Source: Brachyhypopomus gauderio
Lineage: Eukaryota; Chordata; Actinopteri; Gymnotiformes; Hypopomidae
Direction of reading: 5' to 3'
Length of the DNA: 64,000 nt
Assembly (NCBI RefSeq): GCF_052324685.1
Contig: NW_027506880.1
Location: forward strand, 742,001 to 806,000
The first letter of the stretch is position 1, and each line of letters starts with the position of its first letter. Below are positions 23,630 to 64,000 of this stretch, piece by piece. Made by a program: the position numbers and the translations under genes. Under the pieces are notes generated by a model. It was not told the DNA's origin. It worked only from the letters and a program-made list of their open reading frames with translations, and searched no databases.

Positions 23630-47423
<23,794 letters not shown>

Positions 47424-49252
47424 GAACTGATGACATTTTGAACCACAACTACTGTAAGAGAAGAGGTGCTGGAATATGTGAAGATCAGACGCTGATCCAC
47501 TTTAACCCCTACGATTTCATCTCCAAGGTTCTTTCTGGTCGTGAACATTTCCTTTGTGAATACTCCTATGATCAGTATTAGTTTTGGGTTCTTATACCTG
47601 CAACTCTGTCACACATCAGATGGACATGTCCTTGGTCACGTTTGACAGATTTGGAACAGAGCAACTATGGGCTGTTACCCTCTCGATTGACTTTCTTCAG
47701 TAAAAACCCACTACAAGCTGATGAGGCTGGGCCTGATTTAACTTGCTGAAGATGATTCAGAAACTTGGACCAGTTGCTTTACTTTCAATAATATGAAACA
47801 TGTTATTGTATGATCTTAGCATTTACGTTTATATGGTTCTACTGTGTTTCTTCTGCAGTGGCATTGGTCTTCATGTGGTAAATCCTACATGACAAGTGTG
47901 ATTTGTATATATTCTTTATAAATATATATTAACATAATCGTAATGTTTTAAATCTCGTGGGCAAATTGGTCAGCACATATGTCTGGGTGGGACTGGGTGT
48001 TTTAAAATTCAAGAGAATGATAAGGCTTGGAAATCATGATTATGTACATATCGTGTCTTGAAGGAAGCGCTAAGTGACGTAGTGACGTGTAGCGTCCCAA
48101 CGAGCAGGCTGTTGTGGGTTTCTGCAGACGTCCGACTGTCTTGGCCTTAAAGATCCGTCAGATCTCTTCTGCTCATAAGATTTACATTTTGGTTCTGCTT
48201 CTCAAGCCATGTGTTCACTGTTTACCCTGACCAGGGCTTGGACCTTAAAAACCAACCGTTGCCTTTTCAGTGTTATATCAGCGGGGAGGAAGTGATGCAG
48301 GGTTCCACACTACAACTCTCGTTAAAACTCTAGCTAACTAAAACGGTTTATGTGTGAAAACTAGACTGCAGGTTACCCCCTGCTAGTTTTCATCATTATT
48401 AAAACGTTTTAGCAGCATTTCCAATATAAGTATTACTTAAAGAATACAAGTCCTGATGTGTTATCTAGTCATGCTAGCTGTTTAGTTACTGTTACCTTAG
48501 TAAAGGTAAAGTTAGTTATAAACAGTAATCAACCACTTCATCTATATTTAGTTTCTTAGTAGGCCAGGTTTTTTGTGTTGACTTACTGTGGTAGACAACT
48601 GACATGATGGAGAGACAGACTTCCAAATTTCTAAAGCTCTTTTTCTTTTTTCTCTTAAATAAAAGCTGTTCTCATGTCTGGCAAGATTATATAACCTATG
48701 GTTTAAACAAAGATGGGCTGAATATTTGTGTCCATCCCATTTCACAACAGAAGCCTGTAAGGAAAGACGATGATAAGGATTTTTTTCATGATGGTTGAAC
48801 AACTAATGCACAGTATGAAGTATTGGATATTTGCTGAGATGTTGGGCACAGCTCTTATACTAGCTGCAATAATGGTTAAGTGATTGTCAAGAAACAGTGA
48901 AAAATGTCCAAATTAGCACAGCAGTACGAATATCTGTGAAAATGTATCCATGCAATACATGTGAAAATAACTGGAACTATAAATGCTTGTGAAGTAGTGC
49001 TTTAGATTTCAGCATTAGTCCCTGAGCAGTGGTTTACAAGAAACTGGACGTGTACTAAAGGAGCAAAAGGGGCGGGGCTTTTACTGAGCAGGTCAAAAAA
49101 ATTTTTGTTAACGTACTTTTCTGAAATAAACGGTCAACAGTGAATTTTCGGTGAGTGTTGTCTGGTGACATTGCTGTGATAAAGATCCTGTGATGATCAC
49201 GTGTTTCTATGATGAAGATGTGAATATGCTTACCCCCTGGATCAGTCTTTTT
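47424..49252. other. 3' UTR and downstream flank of ppp1r9b
   Basis: The ppp1r9b 3' UTR begins here. AATAAA at 48658-48663 is one possible poly(A) signal, with no firm support. No further gene, RNA or recognisable transposon was seen before the tRNA array begins. Confidence 0.45.
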
Positions 49253-49359
49253 AAAGAAGAGAAGACCTACAGCATATCCAGTGTTGACATGATGACTTCC
49301 ATGCTCTGATAGAGTGAGGAAAAGCCCACGAGAAATGTGCACAACACTACTAAGTGAGT

Positions 49360-49433
49360 TGTCTGTAGTGTAGTGGCTTTTCACGTTTGTCTAACACGTG
49401 AAAGGTCCCTTGTTCGATACCAGGCAGAAACGT
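49360..49433 (+). pseudogene. tRNA-Val(AAC) pseudogene 1
   Basis: Cloverleaf order is recognisable with loop CTAACAC. The acceptor 5' side TTGTCTG no longer pairs with CAGAAAC, the anticodon stem is weak (TTTGT/GTGAA), the D arm is one base longer, and the T stem is broken (CCTTG/CCAGG). It follows a B spacer end, where the intact array has a CAC gene. Confidence 0.85.
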
Positions 49434-49642
49434 GCTTCTTGATCAGATGCCAGACACACAAGTGCCATTTTTTGCTAGGATGCCTATGGGAAGGCCATCG
49501 GGGAGATGTTCCCTTTAGGTGAATGTTTTGTCTTTAAGGAGAGTAGACGTACAGCTTAGCCAGTGTTGACCAGATGAATTCCTTGCTCGGAAAGAATGAG
49601 TAAAAGTCCATGGGAGATATGCGATTACATGTGACAGTAGAG

Positions 49643-49715
49643 GTTTCTGTAGTGTAGTGGTCATTACGTTGGCCCCACACACGAAAGGTCTCTGGTTCGA
49701 TACCAGGCAAAAACA
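49643..49715 (+). pseudogene. tRNA-Val(CAC-like) pseudogene 2
   Basis: The anticodon loop is CCCACAC, so invariant U33 is replaced by C. The stem TTGGC/ACGAA has mismatches and the acceptor has C5-A68. It sits after a C spacer, the place of the TAC gene elsewhere. Confidence 0.85.
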
Positions 49716-50285
49716 CTCTTCTTGATAGGATGACACAAACAACTGCTGTTTTGTGGTAGGTTGTCAGTGGAAAGGCCATTGGGGGGCTCTTCCATTTAGA
49801 TCCTCACAGGGAGAAGTCTTCCTCATTATGTGATCGACAAGGAATTAGCTTGATAGAATGACAGACACTCAACTGCTGTTTTGTGGTAGGTTGCCCATGG
49901 AAAGGCTATCGGGGAGCGCTTTCCTTTAGATCCTCACAATGAGCAGTCTGTCTCATTATGAGATCGATACTGCAATGTGATTCACCCCCATTTAGTTTGA
50001 AAGCAGTATCAATGCAGCTGGTTGAATCAAAATGAAACTTAGTGGAAAGTTGCCTAGTGCTTTGTCATGTTGTCTCCCAACATGGAAAACTCATGCTACA
50101 CGGTTGATTTGTAGAAGTTTGTGTTAGAAAGGGAACGAATGAAGACAATAATTGGTGTTTGAATGTGAATGTTTTGTTGAAAAGCTGAGAAGACCTACTG
50201 CTTAGGCAATGTTGGCAGAATGACATTCATGCCACAAAAAATGAGGAAGAGCTCGTGAGATTTCAAAATTGGATCAGTATGTCAG

Positions 50286-50339
50286 GTTTCTGTAGTGTAG
50301 TGGTCATCACGTTCGCCTAACACGCGAAAGGCAGAAACA
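50286..50339 (+). pseudogene. tRNA-Val(AAC) pseudogene 3, T arm deleted
   Basis: The acceptor 5' side, D arm and anticodon arm (CTAACAC) are intact. The sequence then jumps from CGAAAGG straight to CAGAAAC, losing the T arm and the B box. The loss runs between two AGG copies present in the intact gene. Confidence 0.92.
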
Positions 50340-50784
50340 TGCTTCTTGATCAGATGCCAGACACACAAGTGGCATTTTTTGCTAGGATGCCTATGGGAAG
50401 GCCATCGTGGAGATGTTCCCTTTAGGTCATCACAGTGAGACGTCTGCCTCATTATGTTATCGACACAGGAATGTGTTAAACCCCCATATAGGTTGATGGC
50501 AATTCTAAAGCAGCTTGCTAAATCAAAATGAAACTTATTGGAAAGTTGCCTGGTGCCTTGTCATGTTGTCTCCGCACAAAGAAAACTCTTGCTACTTAGT
50601 TGCTTCGTAGAAGTTACTGTTACAAAAGTAAGGAATGAAGACAACATTTGGCTCTTGGATGTGAATGTTTTGTCTTTAAGGAGAGTAGACGTACAGCTTA
50701 GCCAGTGTTGACAAGATTAATTCCATGCTCGGAAAGAATGAGTAAAAGTCCATGGGAGATATGCGATAACATGTGACCAGTGAG

Positions 50785-50857
50785 GTTTCTGTAGTGTAGT
50801 GGTCATCATGTTCGCCTTACACGCGAAAGGTCCCTGGTTCGATACCAGGCAGAAACA
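50785..50857 (+). tRNA. tRNA-Val(TAC) 4
   Basis: Full cloverleaf: GTTTCTG/CAGAAAC acceptor, anticodon loop CTTACAC, T stem CCTGG/CCAGG with TTCGATA loop. C25 is T, leaving a G-U pair in the D stem, so function is probable but not certain. Confidence 0.85.
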
Positions 50858-51296
50858 TTCTTCTTGATAGGATGACACAAACAACTGCTGTTTTGTGGTA
50901 GGTTGTCAGTGGAAAGGCCATTGGGGGGCTCTTCCATTTAGATCCTCACAGGGAGAAGTCTTCCTCATTATGTGATCGACAAGGAATTAGCTAAAACTCG
51001 ATGTACCTTGATGGCGGTACTACTGCAGCCCGTGCAATAAAAATGACACTAAGTGGAAACTTGCCCCATGCTTTATGTTGTCTCCCAACATAGAAAAGTT
51101 ATGCTATGCAGGTGATTTGTAGAAGTAACTGTTTTACAAAGGAAGGGAATGAAGACAACATTTGGTGTTTGGATGTAAATGTTTTGTCTGAAAGAAGAGA
51201 AGACCTACAGCATAGCCAGTGTTGACATGATGACTTCCATGCTCTGATAGAGTGAGGAAAAGCCCACGAGAAATATGCCCAAGAGTACTAAGTGAG

Positions 51297-51369
51297 GTTT
51301 CTGTAGTGTAGTGGTCATCACGTTCGCCTCACACGCGAAAGGTCCCTGGTTCGATACCAGGCAGAAACA
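51297..51369 (+). tRNA. tRNA-Val(CAC) 5
   Basis: Fully paired cloverleaf: 7-bp acceptor GTTTCTG/CAGAAAC, anticodon stem TTCGC/GCGAA with loop CTCACAC, T stem CCTGG/CCAGG, discriminator A. A box and B box (GGTTCGATACC) are canonical. Compared with the remembered mammalian tRNA-Val(CAC), changes in the acceptor and T stems are paired, a sign of selection on structure. Confidence 0.95.
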
Positions 51370-51811
51370 TCCTTCTTGATAGAATGACAGACACTCAACT
51401 GCTGTTTTGTGGTAGGTTGCCCATGGAAAGGCTATCGGGGAGCGCTTTCCTTTAGATCCTCACAGTGAGCAGTCTGTCTCATTATGTGATCGATACAGGA
51501 ATGTGATAAACCCCCATTTAGCTTGAAAGCAGTATCAATGCAGCTGGTTGAATCAAAATGAAACTTAGTGGAAAGTTGCCTAGTGCTTTGTCATGTTGTC
51601 TCCCAACATGGAAAACTCATGCTACATGGTTGATTTGTAGAAGTTTGTGTTAGAAAGGGAACGAATGAAGACAATAATTGGTGTTTGAATGTGAATGTTT
51701 TGTTGAAAAGCTGAGAAGACCTACTGCTTAGGCAATGTTGGCAGAATGACGTTCATGCCACAAAAAATGAGGAAGAGCTCGTGAGATTTCAAAATTGGAT
51801 CAGTATGTCAG

Positions 51812-51884
51812 GTTTCTGTAGTGTAGTTGTCATCACGTTCGCCTAACACGCGAAAGGTCTCTGGTTCGATACCAGGCAAAAACA
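51812..51884 (+). pseudogene. tRNA-Val(AAC) 6, structurally defective
   Basis: Loop CTAACAC. The D loop reads AGTTGT, losing invariant G18. The 3' acceptor side CAAAAAC leaves a C5-A68 mismatch, and the T stem begins T-G. Probably a poor or dead tRNA; first gene of the core two-gene unit. Confidence 0.8.
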
Positions 51885-52323
51885 CTCTTCTTGATAGGAT
51901 GACACAAACAACTGCTGTTTTGTGGTAGGTTGTCAGTGGAAAGGCCATTGGGGGGCTCTTCCATTTAGATCCTCACAGGGAGAAGTCTTCCTCATTATGT
52001 GATCGACAAGGAATTAGCTAAAACTCGATGTACCTTGATGGCGGTACTACTGCAGCCCGTGCAATAAAAATGACACTAAGTGGAAACTTGCCCCGTGCTT
52101 TATGTTGTCTCCCAACATAGAAAAGTTATGCTATGCAGGTGATTTGTAGAAGTAACTGTTTTACAAAGGAACGGAATGAAGACAACATTTGGTGTTTGGA
52201 TGTAAATGTTTTGTCTGAAAGAAGAGAAGACCTACAGCATAGCCAGTGTTGACATGATGACTTCCATGCTCTGATAGAGTGAGGAAAAGCCCACGAGAAA
52301 TATGCCCAAGAGTACTAAGTGAG

Positions 52324-52396
52324 GTTTCTGTAGTGTAGTGGTCGTCACGTTCGCCTCACACGCGAAAGGTCCCTGGTTCGATACCAGGCAGAAACA
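52324..52396 (+). tRNA. tRNA-Val(CAC) 7
   Basis: As gene 5 except GTCGTCAC for GTCATCAC, an A21-type to G change in the D arm. Stems are otherwise fully paired. Confidence 0.9.
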
Positions 52397-52838
52397 TCCT
52401 TCTTGATAGAATGACAGACACTCAACTGCTGTTTTGTGGTAGGTTGCCCATGGAAAGGCTATCGGGGAGCGCTTTCCTTTAGATCCTCACAGTGAGCAGT
52501 CTGTCTCATTATGTGATCGATACAGGAATGTGATAAACCCCCATTTAGCTTGAAAGCAGTATCAATGCAGCTGGTTGAATCAAAATGAAACTTAGTGGAA
52601 AGTTGCCTAGTGCATTGTCATGTTGTCTCCCAACATGGAAAACTCATGCTACACGGTTGATTTGTAGAAGTTTGTGTTAGAAAGGGAACGAATGAAGACA
52701 ATAATTGGTGTTTGAATGTGAATGTTTTGTTGAAAAGCTGAGAAGACCTACTGCTTAGGCAATGTTGGCAGAATGACGTTCATGCCACAAAAAATGAGGA
52801 AGAGCTCGTGAGATTTCAAAATTGGATCAGTATATCAG

Positions 52839-52911
52839 GTTTCTGTAGTGTAGTTGTCATCACGTTTGCCTAACACGCGAAAGGTCTCTGGTTCGATACC
52901 AGGCAAAAACA
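52839..52911 (+). pseudogene. tRNA-Val(AAC) 8, structurally defective
   Basis: Loop CTAACAC, G18 lost (AGTTGT), anticodon stem TTTGC/GCGAA with a U-G pair, acceptor C5-A68 mismatch. Confidence 0.8.
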
Positions 52912-53350
52912 CTCTTCTTGATAGGATGACACAAACAACTGCTGTTTTGTGGTAGGTTGTCAGTGGAAAGGCCATTGGGGGGCTCTTCCATTTAGATCCT
53001 CACAGGGAGAAGTCTTCCTCATTATGTGATCGACAAGGAATTAGCTAAAACTCGATGTACCTTGATGGCGGTACTACTGCAGCCCGTGCAATAAAAATGA
53101 CACTAAGTGGAAACTTGCCCCGTGCTTTATGTTGTCTCCCAACATAGAAAAGTTATGCTATGCAGGTGATTTGTAGAAGTAACTGTTTTACAAAGGAACG
53201 GAATGAAGACAACATTTGGTGTTTGGATGTAAATGTTTTGTCTGAAAGAAGAGAAGACCTACAGCATAGCCAGTGTTGACATGATGACTTCCATGCTCTG
53301 ATAGAGTGAGGAAAAGCCCACGAGAAATATGCCCAAGAGTACTAAGTGAG

Positions 53351-53423
53351 GTTTCTGTAGTGTAGTGGTCATCACGTTCGCCTCACACGCGAAAGGTCCC
53401 TGGTTCGATACCAGGCAGAAACA
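53351..53423 (+). tRNA. tRNA-Val(CAC) 9
   Basis: Same sequence as gene 5, with all stems paired and both internal promoter boxes intact. Confidence 0.95.
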
Positions 53424-53865
53424 TCCTTCTTGATAGAATGACAGACACTCAACTGCTGTTTTGTGGTAGGTTGCCCATGGAAAGGCTATCGGGGAGCGCT
53501 TTCCTTTAGATCCTCACAGTGAGCAGTCTGTCTCATTATGTGATCGATACAGGAATGTGATAAACCCCCATTTAGCTTGAAAGCAGTATCAATGCAGCTG
53601 GTTGAATCAAAATGAAACTTAGTGGAAAGTTGCCTAGTGCATTGTCATGTTGTCTCCCAACATGGAAAACTCATGCTACACGGTTGATTTGTAGAAGTTT
53701 GTGTTAGAAAGGGAACGAATGAAGACAATAATTGGTGTTTGAATGTGAATGTTTTGTTGAAAAGCTGAGAAGACCTACTGCTTAGGCAATGTTGGCAGAA
53801 TGACGTTCATGCCACAAAAAATGAGGAAGAGCTCGTGAGATTTCAAAATTGGATCAGTATATCAG

Positions 53866-53938
53866 GTTTCTGTAGTGTAGTTGTCATCACGTTTGCCTAA
53901 CACGCGAAAGGTCTCTGGTTCGATACCAGGCAAAAACA
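53866..53938 (+). pseudogene. tRNA-Val(AAC) 10, structurally defective
   Basis: Same defects as gene 8 (G18 lost, C5-A68, U-G in the anticodon stem). Confidence 0.8.
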
Positions 53939-54377
53939 CTCTTCTTGATAGGATGACACAAACAACTGCTGTTTTGTGGTAGGTTGTCAGTGGAAAGGCC
54001 ATTGGGGGGCTCTTCCATTTAGATCCTCACAGGGAGAAGTCTTCCTCATTATGTGATCGACAAGGAATTAGCTAAAACTCGATGTACCTTGATGGCGGTA
54101 CTACTGCAGCCCGTGCAATAAAAATGACACTAAGTGGAAACTTGCCCCGTGCTTTATGTTGTCTCCCAACATAGAAAAGTTATGCTATGCAGGTGATTTG
54201 TAGAAGTAACTGTTTTACAAAGGAACGGAATGAAGACAACATTTGGTGTTTGGATGTAAATGTTTTGTCTGAAAGAAGAGAAGACCTACAGCATAGCCAG
54301 TGTTGACATGATGACTTCCATGCTCTGATAGAGTGAGGAAAAGCCCACGAGAAATATGCCCAAGAGTACTAAGTGAG

Positions 54378-54450
54378 GTTTCTGTAGTGTAGTGGTCATC
54401 ACGTTCGCCTCACACGCGAAAGGTCCCTGGTTTGATACCAGGCAGAAACA
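54378..54450 (+). tRNA. tRNA-Val(CAC) 11, T-loop variant
   Basis: As gene 5, but the T loop is TTTGATA instead of TTCGATA. This changes invariant C56, which contacts G19 and is also a key base of the pol III B box. Transcription and folding are likely impaired. Confidence 0.75.
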
Positions 54451-54892
54451 TCCTTCTTGATAGAATGACAGACACTCAACTGCTGTTTTGTGGTAGGTTG
54501 CCCATGGAAAGGCTATCGGGGAGCGCTTTCCTTTAGATCCTCACAGTGAGCAGTCTGTCTCATTATGTGATCGATACAGGAATGTGATAAACCCCCATTT
54601 AGCTTGAAAGCAGTATCAATGCAGCTGGTTGAATCAAAATGAAACTTAGTGGAAAGTTGCCTAGTGCTTTGTCATGTTGTCTCCCAACATGGAAAACTCA
54701 TGCTACATGGTTGATTTGTAGAAGTTTGTGTTAGAAAGGGAACGAATGAAGACAATAATTGGTGTTTGAATGTGAATGTTTTGTTGAAAAGCTGAGAAGA
54801 CCTACTGCTTAGGCAATGTTGGCAGAATGACGTTCATGCCACAAAAAATGAGGAAGAGCTCGTGAGATTTCAAAATTGGATCAGTATGTCAG

Positions 54893-54965
54893 GTTTCTGT
54901 AGTGTAGTGGTCATCACGTTTGCCTAACACGCGAAAGGTCTCTGGTTCGATACCAGGCAAAAACA
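54893..54965 (+). tRNA. tRNA-Val(AAC) 12, G18 intact
   Basis: The only core AAC copy with the normal AGTGGT D loop. It still has CAAAAAC (C5-A68 mismatch) and TTTGC/GCGAA. Functional status is uncertain. Confidence 0.7.
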
Positions 54966-55404
54966 CTCTTCTTGATAGGATGACACAAACAACTGCTGTT
55001 TTGTGGTAGGTTGTCAGTGGAAAGGCCATTGGGGGGCTCTTCCATTTAGATCCTCACAGGGAGAAGTCTTCCTCATTATGTGATCGACAAGGAATTAGCT
55101 AAAACTCGATGTACCTTGATGGCGGTACTACTGCAGCCCGTGCAATAAAAATGACACTAAGTGGAAACTTGCCCCGTGCTTTATGTTGTCTCCCAACATA
55201 GAAAAGTTATGCTATGCAGGTGATTTGTAGAAGTAACTGTTTTACAAAGGAACGGAATGAAGACAACATTTGGTGTTTGGATGTAAATGTTTTGTCTGAA
55301 AGAAGAGAAGACCTACAGCATAGCCAGTGTTGACATGATGACTTCCATGCTCTGATAGAGTGAGGAAAAGCCCACGAGAAATATGCCCAAGAGTACTAAG
55401 TGAG

Positions 55405-55477
55405 GTTTCTGTAGTGTAGTGGTCATCACGTTCGCCTCACACGCGAAAGGTCCCTGGTTCGATACCAGGCAGAAACA
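55405..55477 (+). tRNA. tRNA-Val(CAC) 13
   Basis: Same as gene 5; all stems paired. Confidence 0.95.
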
Positions 55478-55919
55478 TCCTTCTTGATAGAATGACAGAC
55501 ACTCAACTGCTGTTTTGTGGTAGGTTGCCCATGGAAAGGCTATCGGGGAGCGCTTTCCTTTAGATCCTCACAGTGAGCAGTCTGTCTCATTATGTGATCG
55601 ATACAGGAATGTGATAAACCCCCATTTAGCTTGAAAGCAGTATCAATGCAGCTGGTTGAATCAAAATGAAACTTAGTGGAAAGTTGCCTAGTGCTTTGTC
55701 ATGTTGTCTCCCAACATGGAAAACTCATGCTACACGGTTGATTTGTAGAAGTTTGTGTTAGAAAGGGAACGAATGAAGACAATAATTGGTGTTTGAATGT
55801 GAATGTTTTGTTGAAAAGCTGAGAAGACCTACTGCTTAGGCAATGTTGGCAGAATGACGTTCATGCCACAAAAAATGAGGAAGAGCTCGTGAGATTTCAA
55901 AATTGGATCAGTATATCAG

Positions 55920-55992
55920 GTTTCTGTAGTGTAGTTGTCATCACGTTTGCCTAACACGCGAAAGGTCTCTGGTTCGATACCAGGCAAAAACA
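55920..55992 (+). pseudogene. tRNA-Val(AAC) 14, structurally defective
   Basis: Same defects as genes 8 and 10. Confidence 0.8.
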
Positions 55993-56431
55993 CTCTTCTT
56001 GATAGGATGACACAAACAACTGCTGTTTTGTGGTAGGTTGTCAGTGGAAAGGCCATTGGGGGGCTCTTCCATTTAGATCCTCACAGGGAGAAGTCTTCCT
56101 CATTATGTGATCGACAAGGAATTAGCTAAAACTCGATGTACCTTGATGGCGGTACTACTGCAGCCCGTGCAATAAAAATGACACTAAGTGGAAACTTGCC
56201 CCGTGCTTTATGTTGTCTCCCAACATAGAAAAGTTATGCTATGCAGGTGATTTGTAGAAGTAACTGTTTTACAAAGGAACGGAATGAAGACAACATTTGG
56301 TGTTTGGATGTAAATGTTTTGTCTGAAAGAAGAGAAGACCTACAGCATAGCCAGTGTTGACATGATGACTTCCATGCTCTGATAGAGTGAGGAAAAGCCC
56401 ACGAGAAATATGCCCAAGAGTACTAAGTGAG

Positions 56432-56504
56432 GTTTCTGTAGTGTAGTGGTCATCACGTTCGCCTCACACGCGAAAGGTCCCTGGTTCGATACCAGGCAGA
56501 AACA
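56432..56504 (+). tRNA. tRNA-Val(CAC) 15
   Basis: Same as gene 5; all stems paired. Confidence 0.95.
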
Positions 56505-56946
56505 TCCTTCTTGATAGAATGACAGACACTCAACTGCTGTTTTGTGGTAGGTTGCCCATGGAAAGGCTATCGGGGAGCGCTTTCCTTTAGATCCTCACAG
56601 TGAGCAGTCTGTCTCATTATGTGATCGATACAGGAATGTGATAAACCCCCATTTAGCTTGAAAGCAGTATCAATGCAGCTGGTTGAATCAAAATGAAACT
56701 TAGTGGAAAGTTGCCTAGTGCTTTGTCATGTTGTCTCCCAACATGGAAAACTCATGCTACACGGTTGATTTGTAGAAGTTTGTGTTAGAAAGGGAACGAA
56801 TGAAGACAATAATTGGTGTTTGAATGTGAATGTTTTGTTGAAAAGCTGAGAAGACCTACTGCTTAGGCAATGTTGGCAGAATGACGTTCATGCCACAAAA
56901 AATGAGGAAGAGCTCGTGAGATTTCAAAATTGGATCAGTATGTCAG

Positions 56947-57019
56947 GTTTCTGTAGTGTAATTGTCATCAAGTTTGCCTAACACGCGAAAGGTCTCTGGT
57001 TCGATACCAGGCAAAAACA
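56947..57019 (+). pseudogene. tRNA-Val(AAC) 16, most decayed core copy
   Basis: The D arm reads GTGTAATTGTCATCAA. The A box loses more bases and the D stem loses its C25 pair, on top of G18 loss and the C5-A68 mismatch. Confidence 0.85.
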
Positions 57020-57458
57020 CTCTTCTTGATAGGATGACACAAACAACTGCTGTTTTGTGGTAGGTTGTCAGTGGAAAGGCCATTGGGGGGCTCTTCCATT
57101 TAGATCCTCACAGGGAGAAGTCTTCCTCATTATGTGATCGACAAGGAATTAGCTAAAACTCGATGTACCTTGATGGCGGTACTACTGCAGCCCGTGCAAT
57201 AAAAATGACACTAAGTGGAAACTTGCCCCGTGCTTTATGTTGTCTCCCAACATAGAAAAGTTATGCTATGCAGGTGATTTGTAGAAGTAACTGTTTTACA
57301 AAGGAACGGAATGAAGACAACATTTGGTGTTTGGATGTAAATGTTTTGTCTGAAAGAAGAGAAGACCTACAGCATAGCCAGTGTTGACATGATGACTTCC
57401 ATGCTCTGATAGAGTGAGGAAAAGCCCACGAGAAATATGCCCAAGAGTACTAAGTGAG

Positions 57459-57531
57459 GTTTCTGTAGTGTAGTGGTCATCACGTTCGCCTCACACGCGA
57501 AAGGTCCCTGGTTCGATACCAGGCAGAAACA
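57459..57531 (+). tRNA. tRNA-Val(CAC) 17, with close terminator
   Basis: Same body as gene 5. Unlike other copies, it is followed within 5 nt by a T5 run (ATCCTTTTTG), a good pol III terminator. Confidence 0.95.
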
Positions 57532-57973
57532 TCCTTTTTGACAGAATGACAGACACTCAACTGCTGTTTTGTGGTAGGGTGCCCATGGAAAGGCTATCGG
57601 GGAGCGCTTTCCTTTAGATCCTCACAATGAGCAGTCTGTCTCATTATGCGATCGATACTGCAATGTGATTCACCCCCATTTAGTTTGAAAGCAGTATCAA
57701 TGCAGCTGGTTGAATCAAAATGAAACTTAGTGGAAAGTTGCCTAGTGCTTTGTCATGTTGTCTCCCAACATGGAAAACTCATGCTACACGGTTGATTTGT
57801 AGAAGTTTGTGTTAGAAAGGGAACGAATGAAGACAATAATTGGTGTTTGAATGTGAATGTTTTGTTGAAAAGCTGAGAAGACCTACTGCTTAGGCAATGT
57901 TGGCAGAATGACGTTCATGCCACAAAAAATGAGGAAGAGCTCGTGAGATTTCAAAATTGGATCAGTATGTCAG

Positions 57974-58046
57974 GTTTCTGTAGTGTAGTGGTCATCACGT
58001 TCGCCTAACACGCGAAAGGTCCCTGGTTCGATACCAGGCAGAAACA
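57974..58046 (+). tRNA. tRNA-Val(AAC) 18, intact
   Basis: The only fully paired AAC copy: normal D loop AGTGGT, stem TTCGC/GCGAA, T stem CCTGG/CCAGG, acceptor GTTTCTG/CAGAAAC. It is followed by a C spacer with a T6 run about 37 nt downstream. Confidence 0.95.
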
Positions 58047-58491
58047 TGCTTCTTGATCAGATGCCAGACACACAAGTGGCATTTTTTGCTAGGATGCCTA
58101 TGGGAAGGCCATCGTGGAGATGTTCCCTTTAGGTCATCACAGTGAGACGTCTGCCTCATTATGTTATCGACACAGGAATGTGTTAAACCCCCATATAGGT
58201 TGATGGCAATTCTAAAGCAGCTTGCTAAATCAAAATGAAACTTATTGGAAAGTTGCCTGGTGCCTTGTCATGTTGTCTCCGCACAAAGAAAACTCTTGCT
58301 ACTTAGTTGCTTCGTAGAAGTTACTGTTACAAAAGTAAGGAATGAAGACAACATTTGGCTCTTGGATGTGAATGTTTTGTCTTTAAGGAGAGTAGACGTA
58401 CAGCTTAGCCAGTGTTGACAAGATGAATTCCATGCTCGGAAAGAATGAGTAAAAGTCCATGGGAGATATGCGATAACATGTGACCAGTGAG

Positions 58492-58564
58492 GTTTCTGTA
58501 GTGTAGTGGTCATCACGTTCGCCTTACACGCGAAAGGTCCCTGGTTCGATACCAGGCAGAAACA
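58492..58564 (+). tRNA. tRNA-Val(TAC) 19, intact
   Basis: Fully paired body identical to gene 5 apart from anticodon TAC (loop CTTACAC). The D stem is CAC, so it is sounder than gene 4. Confidence 0.95.
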
Positions 58565-59003
58565 TTCTTCTTGATAGGATGACACAAACAACTGCTGTTT
58601 TGTGGTAGGTTGTCAGTGGAAAGGCCATTGGCGGGCTCTTCCATTTAGATCCTCACAGGGAGAAGTCTTCCTCATTATGTGATCGACAAGGAATTAGCTA
58701 AAACTCGATGTACCTTGATGGCGGTACTACTGCAGCCCGTGCAATAAAAATGACACTAAGTGGAAACTTGCCCCGTGCTTTATGTTGTCTCCCAACATAG
58801 AAAAGTTATGCTATGCAGGTGATTTGTAGAAGTAACTGTTTTACAAAGGAACGGAATGAAGACAACATTTGGTGTTTGGATGTAAATGTTTTGTCTGAAA
58901 GAAGAGAAGACCTACAGCATAGCCAGTGTTGACATGATGACGTCCATGCTCTGATAGAGTGAGGAAAAGCCCACGAGAAATATGCCCAAGAGTACTAAGT
59001 GAG

Positions 59004-59076
59004 GTTTCTTTAGTGTAGTGGTCATCACGTTCGCCTCACACGCGAAAGGTCCCTGGTTCGATACCAGGCAGAAACA
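59004..59076 (+). tRNA. tRNA-Val(CAC) 20, acceptor variant
   Basis: Anticodon loop CTCACAC. The acceptor 5' side is GTTTCTT, so base 7 no longer pairs with C66. Otherwise intact. Confidence 0.8.
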
Positions 59077-59517
59077 TCCTTCTTGATAGAATGACAGACA
59101 CTCAACTGCTGTTTTGTGGTAGGTTGCCCATGGAAAGGCTATCGGGGAGCGCTTTCCTTTAGATCCTCACAGTGAGCAGTCTGTCTCATTATGTGATCGA
59201 TACAGGAATGTGATAAACCCCCATTTAGCTTGAAAGCAGTATCAATGCAGCTGGTTCAATCAAAATGAAACTTAGTGGAAAGTTGCCTAGTGCTTTGTCA
59301 TGTTGTCTCCCAACATGGAAAACTCATGCTACACGGTTGATTGTAGAAGATTGTGTTAGAAAGGGAACGAATGAAGACAATAATTGGTGTTTGAATGTGA
59401 ATGTTTTGTCTAAAAGCTGAGAAGACCTACTGCTTAGGCAATCTTGGCAGAATGACGTTCATGCCCCAAAAAATGAGGAAGAGCTCGTGAGATTTCAAAA
59501 TTAGATCAATACGTCAG

Positions 59518-59577
59518 GTTTCTGTAGTGTAGTGGTCATCACGTTCGCCTAACATGTGAAAGGTCCCTGGTTCCTGG
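59518..59577 (+). pseudogene. tRNA-Val(AAC) pseudogene 21, truncated
   Basis: The acceptor 5' side, D arm and loop CTAACAT are readable. The sequence breaks off inside the T arm (CCTGGTTCCTGGTTAC) and continues as a partial C spacer. Confidence 0.9.
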
Positions 59578-59663
59578 TTACAAAAATAATGAATGAAGAC
59601 AACATTTGGCTCTTGGATTTGAATGTTTTGTCTTTAAGGAGAGTAGAGGTACAGCTTAGCCCA

Positions 59664-61906
59664 GAGGTCGCCAACAGGCGGACCGCGGTCTGGATCCGGA
59701 CAGGACTGCGTTCAATCTCATTCCTGATTAAGCTATTCAGCGCTATTGAAAAAAACACTCCGTCACGAGTGTTACGTTCGCCCCCAACCCCCCCGCTCAA
59801 CAATTGACGTTCGCGAAATCCCCTCCAACAAGTTACGTTCACCACCACCACCACCACCACCCCCCCCCCCCCCCCCCCCCCCCGTCCCGCTCAACAACTT
59901 ACGTTTGCCGCCACCCCCCCACTCAACAACTTATGTTCGCCACATACCCCCTCCCGTCCCCCGGACCGCTCAGAGCCAAATTTGGTCCGCAGAACCCTGA
60001 CATATAGGTTTAATTTCAATTTGAGCCAAATCATTCCATATGCTACTCTTCATATCAATTGTAATATTAACCATTTAATAAATGTGGACATTTATTCATC
60101 TGGTCACGGTGGTAAATGCATATTTTGGTCGATGGTATTAAGTCACCGCGCGGAACCAGAACTTAACTCTTTAGTAATGAGACTGATCAAGCCATATTCC
60201 ACCTATCTCCGTTATCACAATACTGGTTCCTGAGCAATCAGGATGGTGCCCCATTCATAATCCTTAAACCAGGGGTAATCAACTATATTGTTCCGCGGGC
60301 CAAATTTGGCAGATAGCCCTGACCAGCGGTCCGGGGGACGGGAGGGGGGGTGGCGAACGTAAGTTGTTGAGCGGGGGGGGGGGTGGGTGGCGAACGTAAC
60401 ACTCATGACGGAGTGTTTTTTTCAATAGCGCTGAAATAAATGCTCCGGTTTAAAATGAATTCTCCCGTCAAAATTAAGAAATATTTATTCTGGGTCCGGA
60501 CATATTTTCCTAATTTGATGGGGACAAGTGATAAAGCATAACATTTTCATGATGACTTTTTTTCAATGTGCTGAACACATATTGCACCCATCGGTGGTCC
60601 TCAGGGGTTGTATGAAAAATTCAAGATAAATTCATTCTAATTTAAAAGTTTGGCCTGATGATGGCGCTAGAGGACAGGTCAACTCACAGATTTTCAAGGG
60701 GCTATTTATGTATTCAACAAATAAATAAAGTGCCTGTCCAGGGCCGGTGTCAGGACATAGGCTATACAGTGGGGGGGCATCAGAAAATTTCGGGGTGGCG
60801 AATGTAAATGGTTGACCCGGAGGGGGGGGGGGGGGGGGCGGCAATGTAAGTTGTTGACCGTGGGGGAGGAGGGGTGGGGAACATAAGTTGTTGACCGAGG
60901 GGGGTGGCGAACATAAGTTGTTTTTTTTTTTTTTTTTTTTAATGGCCCACCTCCACCCCCCCATCTTTGGAGGACAACTTTGTTTTTATGTACAGTTCAA
61001 ATGACAATTATAGCAATTATAACAATATGCAAAGTGATAATTATTGGGGTTAGGTGGACCAAGAAAAGAGGGGGAGAGAAAGAATAAAAAGGGAAAAGAC
61101 AGCGGGTGAGGGGGCGCCGTGTAGCGATTATTGTAAAATAAATGGGTCTTATTATTTACATTGAGGGGGTGGGACACATCGCCTGGGGGTGGGGGGGGTC
61201 AGGGAACTTAAGTTGTTGACCGAGGGGGGGGCCGAGGGGGCGCCGTGTAGCGATTGTTGTAAAATAAATGGGTCTTATTTTTTACATTGAGGGGGCGGGA
61301 CACATCGCCTGGGGGTGGGGAGGGGACGTAAGTTGTTGACCGAGGGGGGGGCCGAGCGGTTGAGGGGGCGCCGTGTAGCGATTGTTGTAAAATAAATGGG
61401 TCTTATTATTTACATTGAGGGGGCGGGGCACATCACCTGGGGGGGGGGGGGGGGGGGGTTATAAATTGTTGACCGAGGGGGGGAACGTAAGTTGTTGACC
61501 GAAGGGGGGGGGGGGGTGGCGAACGTAAGCTGTTGACCAGGGGGGGTACCGGGCGGGTGAGGGGGCGCCGTGTAGCGATAAATAAAATAAGTAAAACAAA
61601 TGGGTCTTATTATTTACATTGAGGGGGTGGGACACAACGCCTGAGGGGGCAACGCCCCCTTTTGCCCCACCACCCCCACCCCCCCTGTGGGGCCGGCCCT
61701 GTGCCTGTCCCAAAAATGTGGTCAACAATATTCTGTAAATCATTTTCTAGAGTCAAATATCCCTGGGGTCAAATTGACCCCAAGGACGAATCGTGTAGTA
61801 GTATATTTGAGGATAATAGGACAGTTAATCAGGAATGAGATTGGGTCCGGACAGGACTGCGTTCGGGTTTGGATCCGGACCGCGGTCCGCCTGTTGGTGA
61901 CCTCTG
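59664..61906. mobile_element. Composite of degenerate hAT-type ends and G/C tracts
   Basis: The outer ends are inverted: CAGAGGTCGCCAACAGGCGG at 59664 and CCGCCTGTTGGTGACCTCTG ending at 61906, both followed inward by ACCGCGGTC and TGGATCCGGAC-type sequence. These resemble hAT termini, but no 8-bp duplication is visible (GCTTAGCC against CCATAAAC), so the locus is rearranged. Another hAT-like end (CAGGGGTAATCAACTATATT) starts near 60271. No transposase was found. Its left edge cuts the tRNA array inside a C spacer. Confidence 0.65.
59861..61690. repeat. Poly-C / poly-G tracts with GTAAGTTGTTGACCG repeats
   Basis: A long C run is centred near 59870, and many G runs of 7 to 18 lie from 60360 to 61550. 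Between them the motif GCGAACGTAAGTTGTTGACC recurs at least ten times, as its reverse complement before 59960 and forward after 60350. Four copies of a block holding GCGCCGTGTAGCGATTGTTG and AAATGGGTCTTATTATTTAC begin near 61114, 61230, 61364 and 61565. Homopolymer lengths may be unreliable. Confidence 0.85.
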
Positions 61907-62039
61907 CCATAAACTAACATATGTATCCACTACAGTCCTGAAAACAAGGTACTCTAAGCTTGAAAAACCACTAGACGAAAGTCAAATGATACCTAACAAT
62001 TATACCTGAATATAATATGATATTGCACATGGAAAAACA

Positions 62040-64000
62040 GTAGGAGCAGTAAAGTACAGTGAGGAGATTTTTGTACAGTACAGGTGAGCTATGGAGAGCA
62101 GTGGTTGTTGTACAGTCTGACAGCGGCTGGAAGGAAGGACCTGCGGTATCTCTCCTTCACACAGCGCGGGTGCAGCAGCCGGGCACTGAAGGAGCTGCTC
62201 AGTGCTGACAGGGATTGGTGAATGGGATGGGACAGGTTCTTCAACATGTGCTTGAATTTAGTCCTCATTCTCCTGTCTCCCACCACCTCCACCGGGTCAA
62301 GATGGCCCCCCAGGACAGAGCTGGATTTCTTAATGATTTTGTTCAGTCTCCTCCTGTCAGCAGTGGAGATGCTGCTGCCCCAGCAGACCACTCCATAAAA
62401 GATGGCTGATGCCACCACAGCATCGAAGAAGGTCCTCAGGAGCGCGCACTCCACTCCAAAGGACCTGAGTCTCCCCAGGAGATGTAGTCTGCTCTGACCC
62501 TTCTGGTAAAGTGCAGCTGTGTTGTCAGTCCAGTCCAGCTTGTTGTTGAGATGAACACCCAGGTACTTGTAGGACCTCACCATCTCAATGTCCATTCCCT
62601 GGATGTTCACTGGTACAGGAGAAGAGTGTTTGGCCCTGCGGAAGTCCACTACCAGTTCTTTTGTTTACCTGGTGTTAATCTGCAAGCAGTTCCTCTGGCA
62701 CCAATCCACAAAGTCCTGCGTCAGTTCTCTGTATTCCCTGTCGTCTCCCTCACTGATGAGGTTGACAATAGCGGAGTCGTCTGAGAACTTCTGCAGGTGG
62801 CAGCTGGCAGAGCTGTACTTGAAGTCAGCAGTGTAGAGAGTGAAGAGAAAGGGAGCAAGGACTGTTCTCTGAGGAGCCCCCGTACTGCAGACAACCACGT
62901 CAGACTGGCAGTCTTGTGTCCTCACATACTGAGGTCAGTTTGTGAGGTAGTCCAAGATCCAGGTGGCGAGGTGATGGTCCAAACCAGCGCACTCCAGCTT
63001 GTCCTTCAGTAGTATGGGCTGGATTGTATTGAAAGCACTAGAGAAATAAAAAAACATGATTCTCACAATGCTCCCAGCATTCTCCAGGTGAGAGAGAGAC
63101 CTGTGTAGAAGGTGGATGATGGCATCCTCCACTCCAATGCCAGGTTGGTAGGCAAAATGAAGTGGGTCCATTGCTGGACTCACCAGGGGGTGGAGGTGGA
63201 CAAGAAGCAGTCTCTCCAGGCTTCTTCATCAGGTGTGAAGTCAGTGCCATTGGCCTATAACTATTAAAGTCTTTCGGGTATGGGGTCTTTGGCACTGGTA
63301 CCATGCAAGATGTTTTCCACAGCTTTGGAACTCTCCCTAATCTCAGACTGAGATTAAAGATGTGTCCGGCAACACCACACAACTCGTCGGCACAGGACTT
63401 GAGAAGCCTTGAGCTGATTCCATCTGGGCCTGCAGCCTTCCTGATCTTGATCCTCCTGAGTTCAACTCTCACCTGGGACGTGGTAAATGCCAGACTGAAG
63501 TGGGGGGGGCTGACTGCTGGAATGTGTGTCAGCAGGAGAGCCTTTTGGTAGGGGGGTTGAGTGAGGGGGGCTGGCTGCTGGAGTGAGTGTCAGCAGGAGA
63601 GCTGTTTGGTGGAGGTTGTGAGTTGAAAGGGAGGGGGTTGGGTGTAAAAGAGGGTGTGGGGCAATATGCTGATGGTGCCAGACAGGGAGATCCCAGCTGT
63701 GGTGTCTGTGAAGTGGAGGGGGCAGGTGAGTGATCAAACCTATTAAAGAACAGGTTGAGTTCATTCACCCACTTCTGGTCCCCACCAGCCTGGGAGTCAG
63801 GCTTCTTGTGGCCGGAAATAGTTTTAAGGCTATTCCAGACTCCTCTGACGTTATTCTGCTGCAGCTGGACCTCCATCTTCCTCCTGTAGCTGGCCTTCCC
63901 CTCTCTGATCTTTCTCCTCAGTTCCCTCTGTACACCATTCATCTCCTCTTTGTCACCTGATCTTTATATCAGGGTTAATCCAGGGTTTGTTGTTGGAGAA
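62040..64000 (-). mobile_element. LINE (L2/CR1-like non-LTR retrotransposon), reverse transcriptase region
   Basis: On the minus strand the order is: a basic linker (RRKIREGKASYRRKMEVQLQ, near 63900), then IRKAAGPDGISSRLLKSCAD (63440), YRPMALTSHLMK, LHFAYQPGIGVEDAIIHLLH (63150), PQRTVLAPFLFTLYTADF (62860), the catalytic FSDDSAIV (62780), and the thumb/C-terminal part ending near 62089 (YKYLGVHLNNKLDWTDN and RYRRSFLPAAVRLYNNH). This is the RT core of an L2/CR1-type LINE. A stop lies at about 62671-62673 after QINTR, and frames change between the earlier blocks, so it is inactive. The 5' part, including the endonuclease, lies beyond the right edge. The exact 3' end is not certain. Confidence 0.88.

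What the first reader, a model, noticed from the sequence alone, without database searches (positions are those of the whole stretch)
51812..57973. Core 1,027-bp two-gene unit made by recombination inside a tRNA gene, deleting the TAC gene
At both edges the order is AAC - spacer C - TAC - spacer B - CAC - spacer A. In the core it is AAC - spacer B - CAC - spacer A. Core AAC genes carry a 3' half and trailer of a different type (CAAAAAC, then ACTCTTCTTGATAGGATGAC), like the sequence that follows the TAC position. So the AAC 5' half was joined to the 3' half of the neighbouring gene, using the shared 72 bp as homology. This dropped spacer C and the TAC gene, and the chimera was then amplified six times.
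Basis: partly seen in the sequence, partly recalled or inferred. Interest (0 to 1): 0.75.

Follow-up and report, generated by a model that had tools for sequence, protein, structure and literature searches.

The report
Chimeric tRNA gene seeding tandem repeats
In a vertebrate (probably fish) genome, a misaligned genetic exchange inside a valine tRNA gene made a hybrid, apparently weakened tRNA gene that now sits in six tandem copies of a two-gene unit, a clear but basically expected example of how tandem tRNA arrays evolve.

Summary
The tRNA-Val array (49251-59661) has AAC-C-TAC-B-CAC-A order at both edges and six exact 1,027-bp AAC-B-CAC-A units between. Trees switch. The crossover lies between nt 34 and 49.

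Two corrections. The joint is better read as the junction of a tandem duplication than a deletion of TAC: blocks left and right of the core share six derived spacer sites. And the chimera inherited damage (C5-A68 mismatch, U49-G65): the six copies score 42.8-54.2 bits against 64.9 for the intact AAC gene.

The genome holds 1,132 exact copies of this gene's 3' end; places sampled on two other contigs are long Val arrays. The exact joint signature occurs only here. A Val-derived gene followed by a C-type spacer ends one such array, which supports AAC-C as older. Array tRNA genes look more variable than spacers, partly through CpG sites. A well-resolved member of a known kind.

The parts
49251..49358 (+). 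Tail of a B-type spacer, left end of the array
   Evidence: 93.5% to B tail vs 76.9% C, 66.7% A
49359..49432 (+). Decayed AAC-type gene with B upstream and C downstream: a second gene-internal chimera (first three bases lost or changed)
   Evidence: BLAST; trees (UP with CAC clade 98/96, DN with AAC 100/100); AU 0.028; not listed by Rfam
49433..49642 (+). Spacer C with internal deletion (junction near 49519)
49643..49715 (+). TACo: degenerate TAC-position gene, model of the 3' donor (T49, A68, trailer C74)
   Evidence: Rfam tRNA 36 bits; identical to a core AAC gene from nt 40 for 169 bp; markers
49716..49849 (+). Spacer B head, cut and fused to A* (rest of B and the CAC gene lost)
49850..50285 (+). 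Spacer A* (left copy), six derived sites shared with 57532-57973
50286..50339 (+). AAC gene with a 19-bp internal deletion between AGG repeats
   Evidence: (39.5 bits)
50340..50784 (+). Spacer C (left)
   Evidence: 1 of 445 differs from right copy
50785..50857 (+). tRNA-Val TAC (left edge)
   Evidence: 65.2 bits
50858..51296 (+). Spacer B (left edge)
51297..51369 (+). tRNA-Val CAC (left edge)
   Evidence: 66.2 bits
51370..51811 (+). Spacer A (left edge), upstream of the first chimeric gene
51812..57973 (+). Core: six 1,027-bp units, chimeric AAC - B - CAC - A (last A is A*)
51846..51859 (+). Crossover interval (nt 35-48), shown on the first chimeric gene
   Evidence: nt 34 is AAC-type, nt 49 TACo-type
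56947..57019 (+). Sixth, most damaged chimeric AAC gene (not called by ARAGORN)
   Evidence: 42.8 bits; cloverleaf
57532..57973 (+). Spacer A* (right copy) closing the core
57974..58046 (+). Intact tRNA-Val AAC, right edge
   Evidence: 64.9 bits
58047..58491 (+). Spacer C (right)
58492..58564 (+). tRNA-Val TAC (right)
   Evidence: 67.7 bits
58565..59003 (+). Spacer B (right)
59004..59076 (+). tRNA-Val CAC (right)
   Evidence: 57.3 bits
59077..59517 (+). Spacer A (right), more diverged near the array end
   Evidence: 11 of 514 differ from left CAC-A
59518..59661 (+). Truncated AAC gene fused to an inner piece of spacer C (59577-59661); array end
   Evidence: (28.8 bits, below gathering 29)

Best explanation
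The core is the product of non-allelic (unequal) homologous recombination inside tRNA-Val genes of a small tandem array. Step 1 (chimera shown; event type inferred): an AAC gene lying after a CAC-A unit (position of 59518) paired out of register with a degenerate TAC-position gene (position of 49643), and they crossed over between tRNA nt 34 and 49. The product carries a hybrid AAC gene as the novel joint of a tandem duplication of about 2.6 kb (TACo 3' half - B - CAC - A* - AAC - C - TAC - B - CAC - A - AAC 5' half), which explains why the same block lies left and right of the core. Step 2 (inferred): a second exchange between the B-CAC-A of the left block and the B-CAC-A* after the joint gave the AAC'-B-CAC-A unit, which expanded by unequal exchange to six copies. 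The hybrid gene inherited acceptor-stem and T-stem damage from its donor and gained more, so it is probably a weak or dead tRNA gene carried along with mostly intact CAC genes. No function for the chimera is needed.
For: Tree switch and AU tests. 169 bp exact identity of a core AAC gene to the 49643 gene from nt 40 on. T49, A68 and C74 shared only by TACo and the 6 core genes among the window's genes; 95 of 95 monomers of 510 or 512 bp from other arrays have C49/G68 (95 of the 130 monomers cut); the exact 3' signature has 7 hits in the assembly, all here. Six A* sites shared by left and right blocks are absent from B, C and seven spacers from other arrays (9 of 9 rows; at site 226 these rows themselves vary, C or G). 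Left/right block divergence is 10 of 1,560 without the array-end segment, homogeneous (p 0.29), against a mean of 3.2 of 1,027 within core units 1-5, so amplification looks younger. A C-type spacer follows a Val-derived gene at the end of another array (89.6% vs 77-82% to other types). In the right-hand unit the longest off-register exact matches lie in the tRNA gene (40, 35, 26 nt), against 24 or less in spacers.
Against: Duplication joint versus earlier duplication plus deletion cannot be separated by these sequences; only event count favours the former. CAC-A left/right divergence is higher (11 of 514; heterogeneity over all five segments p 0.026), which I read as array-end decay (10 of the 11 changes are private to 59004-59517). 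Nt 39 of TACo (A) differs from the core genes (G), so it changed later or the switch lies at nt 40-48. Sites 17 and 29 show all four combinations once the intact AAC gene is counted, so conversion or recurrent mutation also acts; homogenisation could make the core look younger than it is. The outgroup gene before the C-type spacer now reads AAA, and its upstream tail fits no spacer type clearly (73.7-77.1%), so it supports gene-then-C, not the full A-AAC-C order. One assembly, no reads.
Confidence: 0.72

Rival explanations
1. One reading: within one three-gene unit an intrachromatid or unequal exchange removed spacer C and TACo, then the shortened unit was amplified.
For: Same gene-internal chimera. 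Works if the array already had the repeated block order HOR1-HOR2-HOR1-HOR2.
Against: Needs an extra earlier duplication to explain A* and the C-TAC block on both sides. The simple form, with an intact TAC donor of either flanking unit, fails on markers 49, 68, 74.
Confidence: 0.2
2. The two-gene order is ancestral and C-TAC was inserted later at the edges.
For: Core units are the most numerous.
Against: AAC-C occurs at 50286, 57974 and 49359, and a Val-derived gene followed by a C-type spacer ends the C32 array. Core AAC genes carry marks absent from other genes. Core units 1-5 are nearly identical, hence young or homogenised.
Confidence: 0.03
3. Gene conversion tracts, not crossover, gave the AAC genes a TAC-type 3' part.
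For: Sites 17 and 29 suggest conversion or recurrent mutation between copies.
Against: The whole 439-bp B spacer and then CAC follow in 6 of 6 copies, and C is absent; that is a change of order, not a patch.
Confidence: 0.04
4. Assembly artefact (collapsed or chimeric contig).
For: Near-identical tandem copies are hard to assemble; no reads available here.
Against: Copies carry private differences; the unit sits inside a 2.66 Mb contig; joint markers are shared with a separately decayed copy at 49643.
Confidence: 0.03

Closest known systems
Human 1q23.3 tRNA tandem repeat (PMC4041453; abstract, outline and results section 12 read)
   Same: Tandem repeat whose unit holds several tRNA genes; copies about 98% alike; copy number varies
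   Different: 7.3-kb unit with five genes (Leu, Gly, Glu, Gly, Asp) on both strands; no gene-internal chimera in what I read; here 1,027 bp, two Val genes, one strand
Arabidopsis SYY tRNA-Ser/Tyr cluster (PMC12308677; section 7 and passages read)
   Same: Core region expanded by tandem duplication, flanked by variable regions rich in variants and pseudogenes
   Different: Different tRNAs; in the parts I read the seed of the core is not described as a crossover inside a tRNA gene
Entamoeba tRNA gene arrays (PMC2652664; abstract start and passages read)
   Same: Multi-gene tandem units; authors invoke concerted evolution and possibly unequal sister exchange, and cite tRNA genes as recombination hot spots
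   Different: Short tandem repeats between genes; nearly all tRNA genes of the organism; protist
Teleost tDNA clusters (PMC2888827; passages read)
   Same: Fish can hold most tRNA genes in clusters (65% zebrafish, 87% stickleback), some with fifty or more members
   Different: Survey level; no unit histories in the passages read
Alpha-satellite higher-order repeats (recalled; only search listings seen)
   Same: Diverged monomers form a multi-monomer unit; out-of-register crossover makes hybrid monomers and shorter units; edges decay
   Different: Monomers here are tRNA genes plus spacer

Membership tests
Tandem tRNA gene array with higher-order units | Head-to-tail tRNA genes at regular spacing | tested here: met
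   Spacing 512/515/518 bp, one strand, except at decayed edges
Tandem tRNA gene array with higher-order units | Multi-monomer units far more alike than monomers within a unit | tested here: met
   Core units 1-5 differ at 2-6 of 1,027, unit 6 at 12-16; spacers A, B, C about 78% alike
Unequal homologous crossover product | Phylogenetic switch at a single place in register | tested here: met
   interval nt 35-48
Unequal homologous crossover product | Reciprocal product or polymorphic intermediate | not testable with these tools
   One assembly; no population data
Tandem duplication joint | Same block on both sides of the joint with shared derived marks | tested here: met
   A* six sites, C 1/445, TAC-B 5/512, CAC-A 11/514; also expected under duplication followed by deletion
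Functional tRNA-Val(AAC) gene (core copies) | Paired acceptor stem, G18G19, intact Levitt pair | tested here: not met
   C5-A68 mismatch 6 of 6; G18 lost 5 of 6; A15 in 1 of 6
Functional tRNA-Val(AAC) gene (core copies) | Transcribed, processed, charged | not testable with these tools
   No expression data

The most novel reading that the evidence does not exclude
In this genome the transcribed tRNA gene is itself the unstable part of its arrays: it is where out-of-register exchanges resolve (two gene-internal chimeras in 10 kb, the second on weaker evidence) and it mutates faster than its spacers, so the array churns out damaged and anticodon-shifted tRNA genes faster than selection removes them, and recombination then fixes them in blocks.
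Probability: 0.25. Interest if true: 0.6.

Novelty: new member of a known kind. Interest (0 to 1): 0.42.

Why it matters
It is an unusually readable fossil of how a new multi-gene repeat unit is born: relatives of both parents, the crossover interval (14 nt) and the duplicated block survive in one 10-kb stretch. It shows how a damaged tRNA gene can be multiplied as a passenger, so that counting tRNA genes may overstate decoding capacity. With over a thousand copies of this gene's 3' end in the same genome, the arrays allow a direct test of whether tRNA genes are hot spots for mutation and exchange in a vertebrate.

Tried and rejected
Intact TAC of either edge as 3' donor: rejected by markers 49, 68, 74. 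Two-gene order as ancestral: disfavoured. Elevated variation in the tRNA gene as plain transcription-linked mutation: weakened. In the core, 6 of 146 gene sites vary against 3 of 881 spacer sites (p 0.0004), but I left out the A* spacer of unit 6 there; with it the spacer count is 13 of 881. With units 1-5 alone it is 4 against 3 (p 0.0097). In other arrays, gene 23/73 vs spacer 69/437 (p 0.003; 60 of 62 C96 monomers) and 20/73 vs 61/439 (p 0.005; 37 of 68 C32 monomers, the rest dropped for length). Without CpG sites the variable-site excess is p 0.088 (C96) and 0.022 (C32). After dropping one misaligned C32 monomer it is p 0.070 with all sites and 0.21 without CpG. Singletons stay about 3-fold in excess without CpG sites (p 0.003 and 0.005), and 2.7-2.8-fold without nt 33-35 as well (p 0.015 and 0.009), where variable sites no longer differ (p 0.33, 0.38). 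So part is CpG decay; the rest is suggestive only. Gene-internal exchange in C96 tested by linkage of anticodon with spacer length class: linked downstream (p 3e-5), not upstream (p 0.54); uninformative, because I did not place the length difference and it may simply lie closer on one side. The cloverleaf check used a misregistered structure and was discarded; one search replaces it. The organism was not identified; 'fish' is inference. Papers: listings showed none on giant fish tRNA-Val arrays; listings showed none whose title or abstract start describes tRNA-gene chimeras seeding repeats. One search (a title phrase) found none.
Full report
What is there. The array runs from 49251 to 59661 on the plus strand. 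Monomers of 512-518 bp each hold one 73-nt tRNA-Val gene and a spacer of type A, B or C; the spacer types are about 78% alike. ARAGORN finds 16 genes; Rfam finds 20 at E up to 0.1 in 44000-64000, of which 19 reach the gathering score and one (59518) is at 28.8 of 29 bits. One further relic (49359) appears only by BLAST.

The gene-internal switch. A tree of upstream sequence plus nt 1-33 (21 rows) puts them with AAC genes (98/93, within 100/100); a tree of nt 35-73 plus downstream sequence (19 rows; the deleted 50286 and truncated 59518 genes are left out) puts them with TAC-position genes (100/100), as sister to the degenerate gene at 49643 (95/96). AU tests reject the opposite placements, though the groups were named after the trees were seen. 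Against the 49643 gene, a core AAC gene is identical from nt 40 for 169 bp, up to where the 49643 copy's B spacer is cut, while it differs from both intact TAC genes at nt 49, 68 and 74. None of 95 monomers from other arrays has T49 or A68 (only lengths 510 and 512, 95 of the 130 cut), and the exact 3' signature occurs 7 times in the 796.5-Mb assembly, all in this array. The switch therefore lies between nt 34 and 49.

Why a duplication joint. Spacer A* after the sixth core unit shares six sites with the spacer A* at 49850-50285; none of nine comparison spacers (B, C, seven from other arrays) has these bases, so they are derived. A* is followed on both sides by AAC-C-TAC-B-CAC-A: C differs at 1 of 445, TAC-B at 5 of 512, CAC-A at 11 of 514. 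The left block begins with the 49643 gene and the right block with the 3' half of the sixth chimeric gene. One unequal crossover between an AAC gene after CAC-A (position 59518) and a TAC-position gene (position 49643) produces exactly this order with one hybrid gene. Deletion of C-TAC needs the block duplicated beforehand. I prefer the single event by parsimony; this step is inferred. Core units 1-5 have spacer A, not A*, so a further exchange preceded amplification. Core units 1-5 differ by a mean of 3.2 of 1,027 sites, the left/right blocks by 10 of 1,560 without the array-end segment and 21 of 2,074 with it, so amplification looks younger, unless conversion has homogenised the core. Sites 17 and 29 show all four combinations among the core genes and the intact AAC gene, which points to conversion or recurrent mutation.

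Polarity. A Val-derived gene (anticodon now AAA) at the right end of the C32 array (L027:5400) is followed by a spacer that is sister to C (100/100; 89.6% vs 77-82% for other types). Its upstream tail fits no spacer type clearly (73.7-77.1%). With three AAC-C junctions at the edges of this array, AAC-C is thus probably older than AAC-B.

A second case. The relic at 49359 has a B tail upstream (93.5%) and C downstream with AAC: a hybrid of CAC-position and AAC-position genes (AU 0.028 from a flank of about 110 bp, so weaker). In the right-hand unit, the tRNA gene is where the longest off-register exact matches lie, which is enough to explain why exchanges fall there; no special hot spot is required.

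State of the genes. All six hybrid genes have a C5-A68 mismatch and a U49-G65 wobble, five of six have lost G18, and one also has A15 and A25; cloverleaf energies are -9.9 to -15.0 kcal/mol against -20.3 for the intact AAC gene, Rfam scores 42.8-54.2 against 64.9. The eight CAC genes score 57.3-66.2; three of them carry one change each. Expression is not tested.

Context. The 29-nt 3' end of this gene occurs 1,132 times (516 plus, 616 minus; reversed control 0); the places printed, the first of the list, all lie on contig C32. Regions that I fetched from C32 and C96 hold AAC, CAC and TAC genes at about 510-512 bp spacing, with 710-bp and longer steps on C32. Stretches of spacers A, B and C have matches of at most 87% outside this locus among the scored candidates (40 scored of 192, 804 and 1,036); the first 356 bp of C reach 89.6% at L027. 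Among monomers of standard length, 12 of 60 (C96) and 16 of 37 (C32) genes are unmutated. Gene sites vary more than spacer sites, partly by CpG decay; a roughly three-fold excess of singletons remains without CpG sites, while the excess of variable sites does not hold up after the cleanest filters. Transcription-associated mutagenesis at tRNA genes is described in PMC8113476 (passages read, citing Thornlow et al. 2018, which I did not see); PMC2652664 (passages) cites work on tRNA genes as recombination hot spots.

Verdict. It is a clear member of a known kind of process.

Noticed in passing
G000 contigs C32 (places from 1.5 to 527 kb) and C96 (places from 30 to 429 kb); L021-L029, L034: Long tRNA-Val arrays with the same monomer family; 1,132 exact copies of the gene's 3' end genome-wide. 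I saw samples, not the whole stretch.
   Followed up: partly
L023:7458, L024:125 and 1657, L027:5400, L029:6031: Val-backbone genes whose anticodons have mutated to CTC (Glu), TCC (Gly), AAA (Phe) or GAC (Val); possible mistranslating or dead tRNAs.
   Followed up: no
L025-L029 (C32): AAC array monomers of 512, 710, 908 and 1,106 bp: steps of 198 bp from repeated spacer segments, a repeat within the repeat.
   Followed up: no
L024:6131-9955 (C96 near 430 kb): Five 93-nt tRNA-Ile(TAT) calls start within 1 kb of the last Val gene of the array.
   Followed up: no
window 49519, 49850, 50331, 59573: Four deletions or fusions at array edges with little or no homology, unlike the gene-internal crossovers: edge decay.
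   Followed up: partly
window 57535: The trailer of the last core CAC gene has TTTT at +4; the other 17 copies listed have the first TTTT at +34 or +36, so Pol III may stop much earlier there.
   Followed up: no
window 23630-24982: Long plus-strand open exon ending in a weak PDZ_5 match, below Pfam's cut-off; looks like neurabin/spinophilin (recalled). The array lies downstream of it.
   Followed up: no
window 46694-47287 and 62089-63472: Myb/SANT-like ORF, perhaps a Harbinger-type element (recalled), and reverse-transcriptase-like ORFs (no Pfam match, by eye only).
   Followed up: no
window 40711-41175; 25401-26539; 61100-61453: Minisatellites: 56-bp unit x8.3 at 99%, G-rich 14/39-bp units, 128-bp unit.
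   Followed up: no
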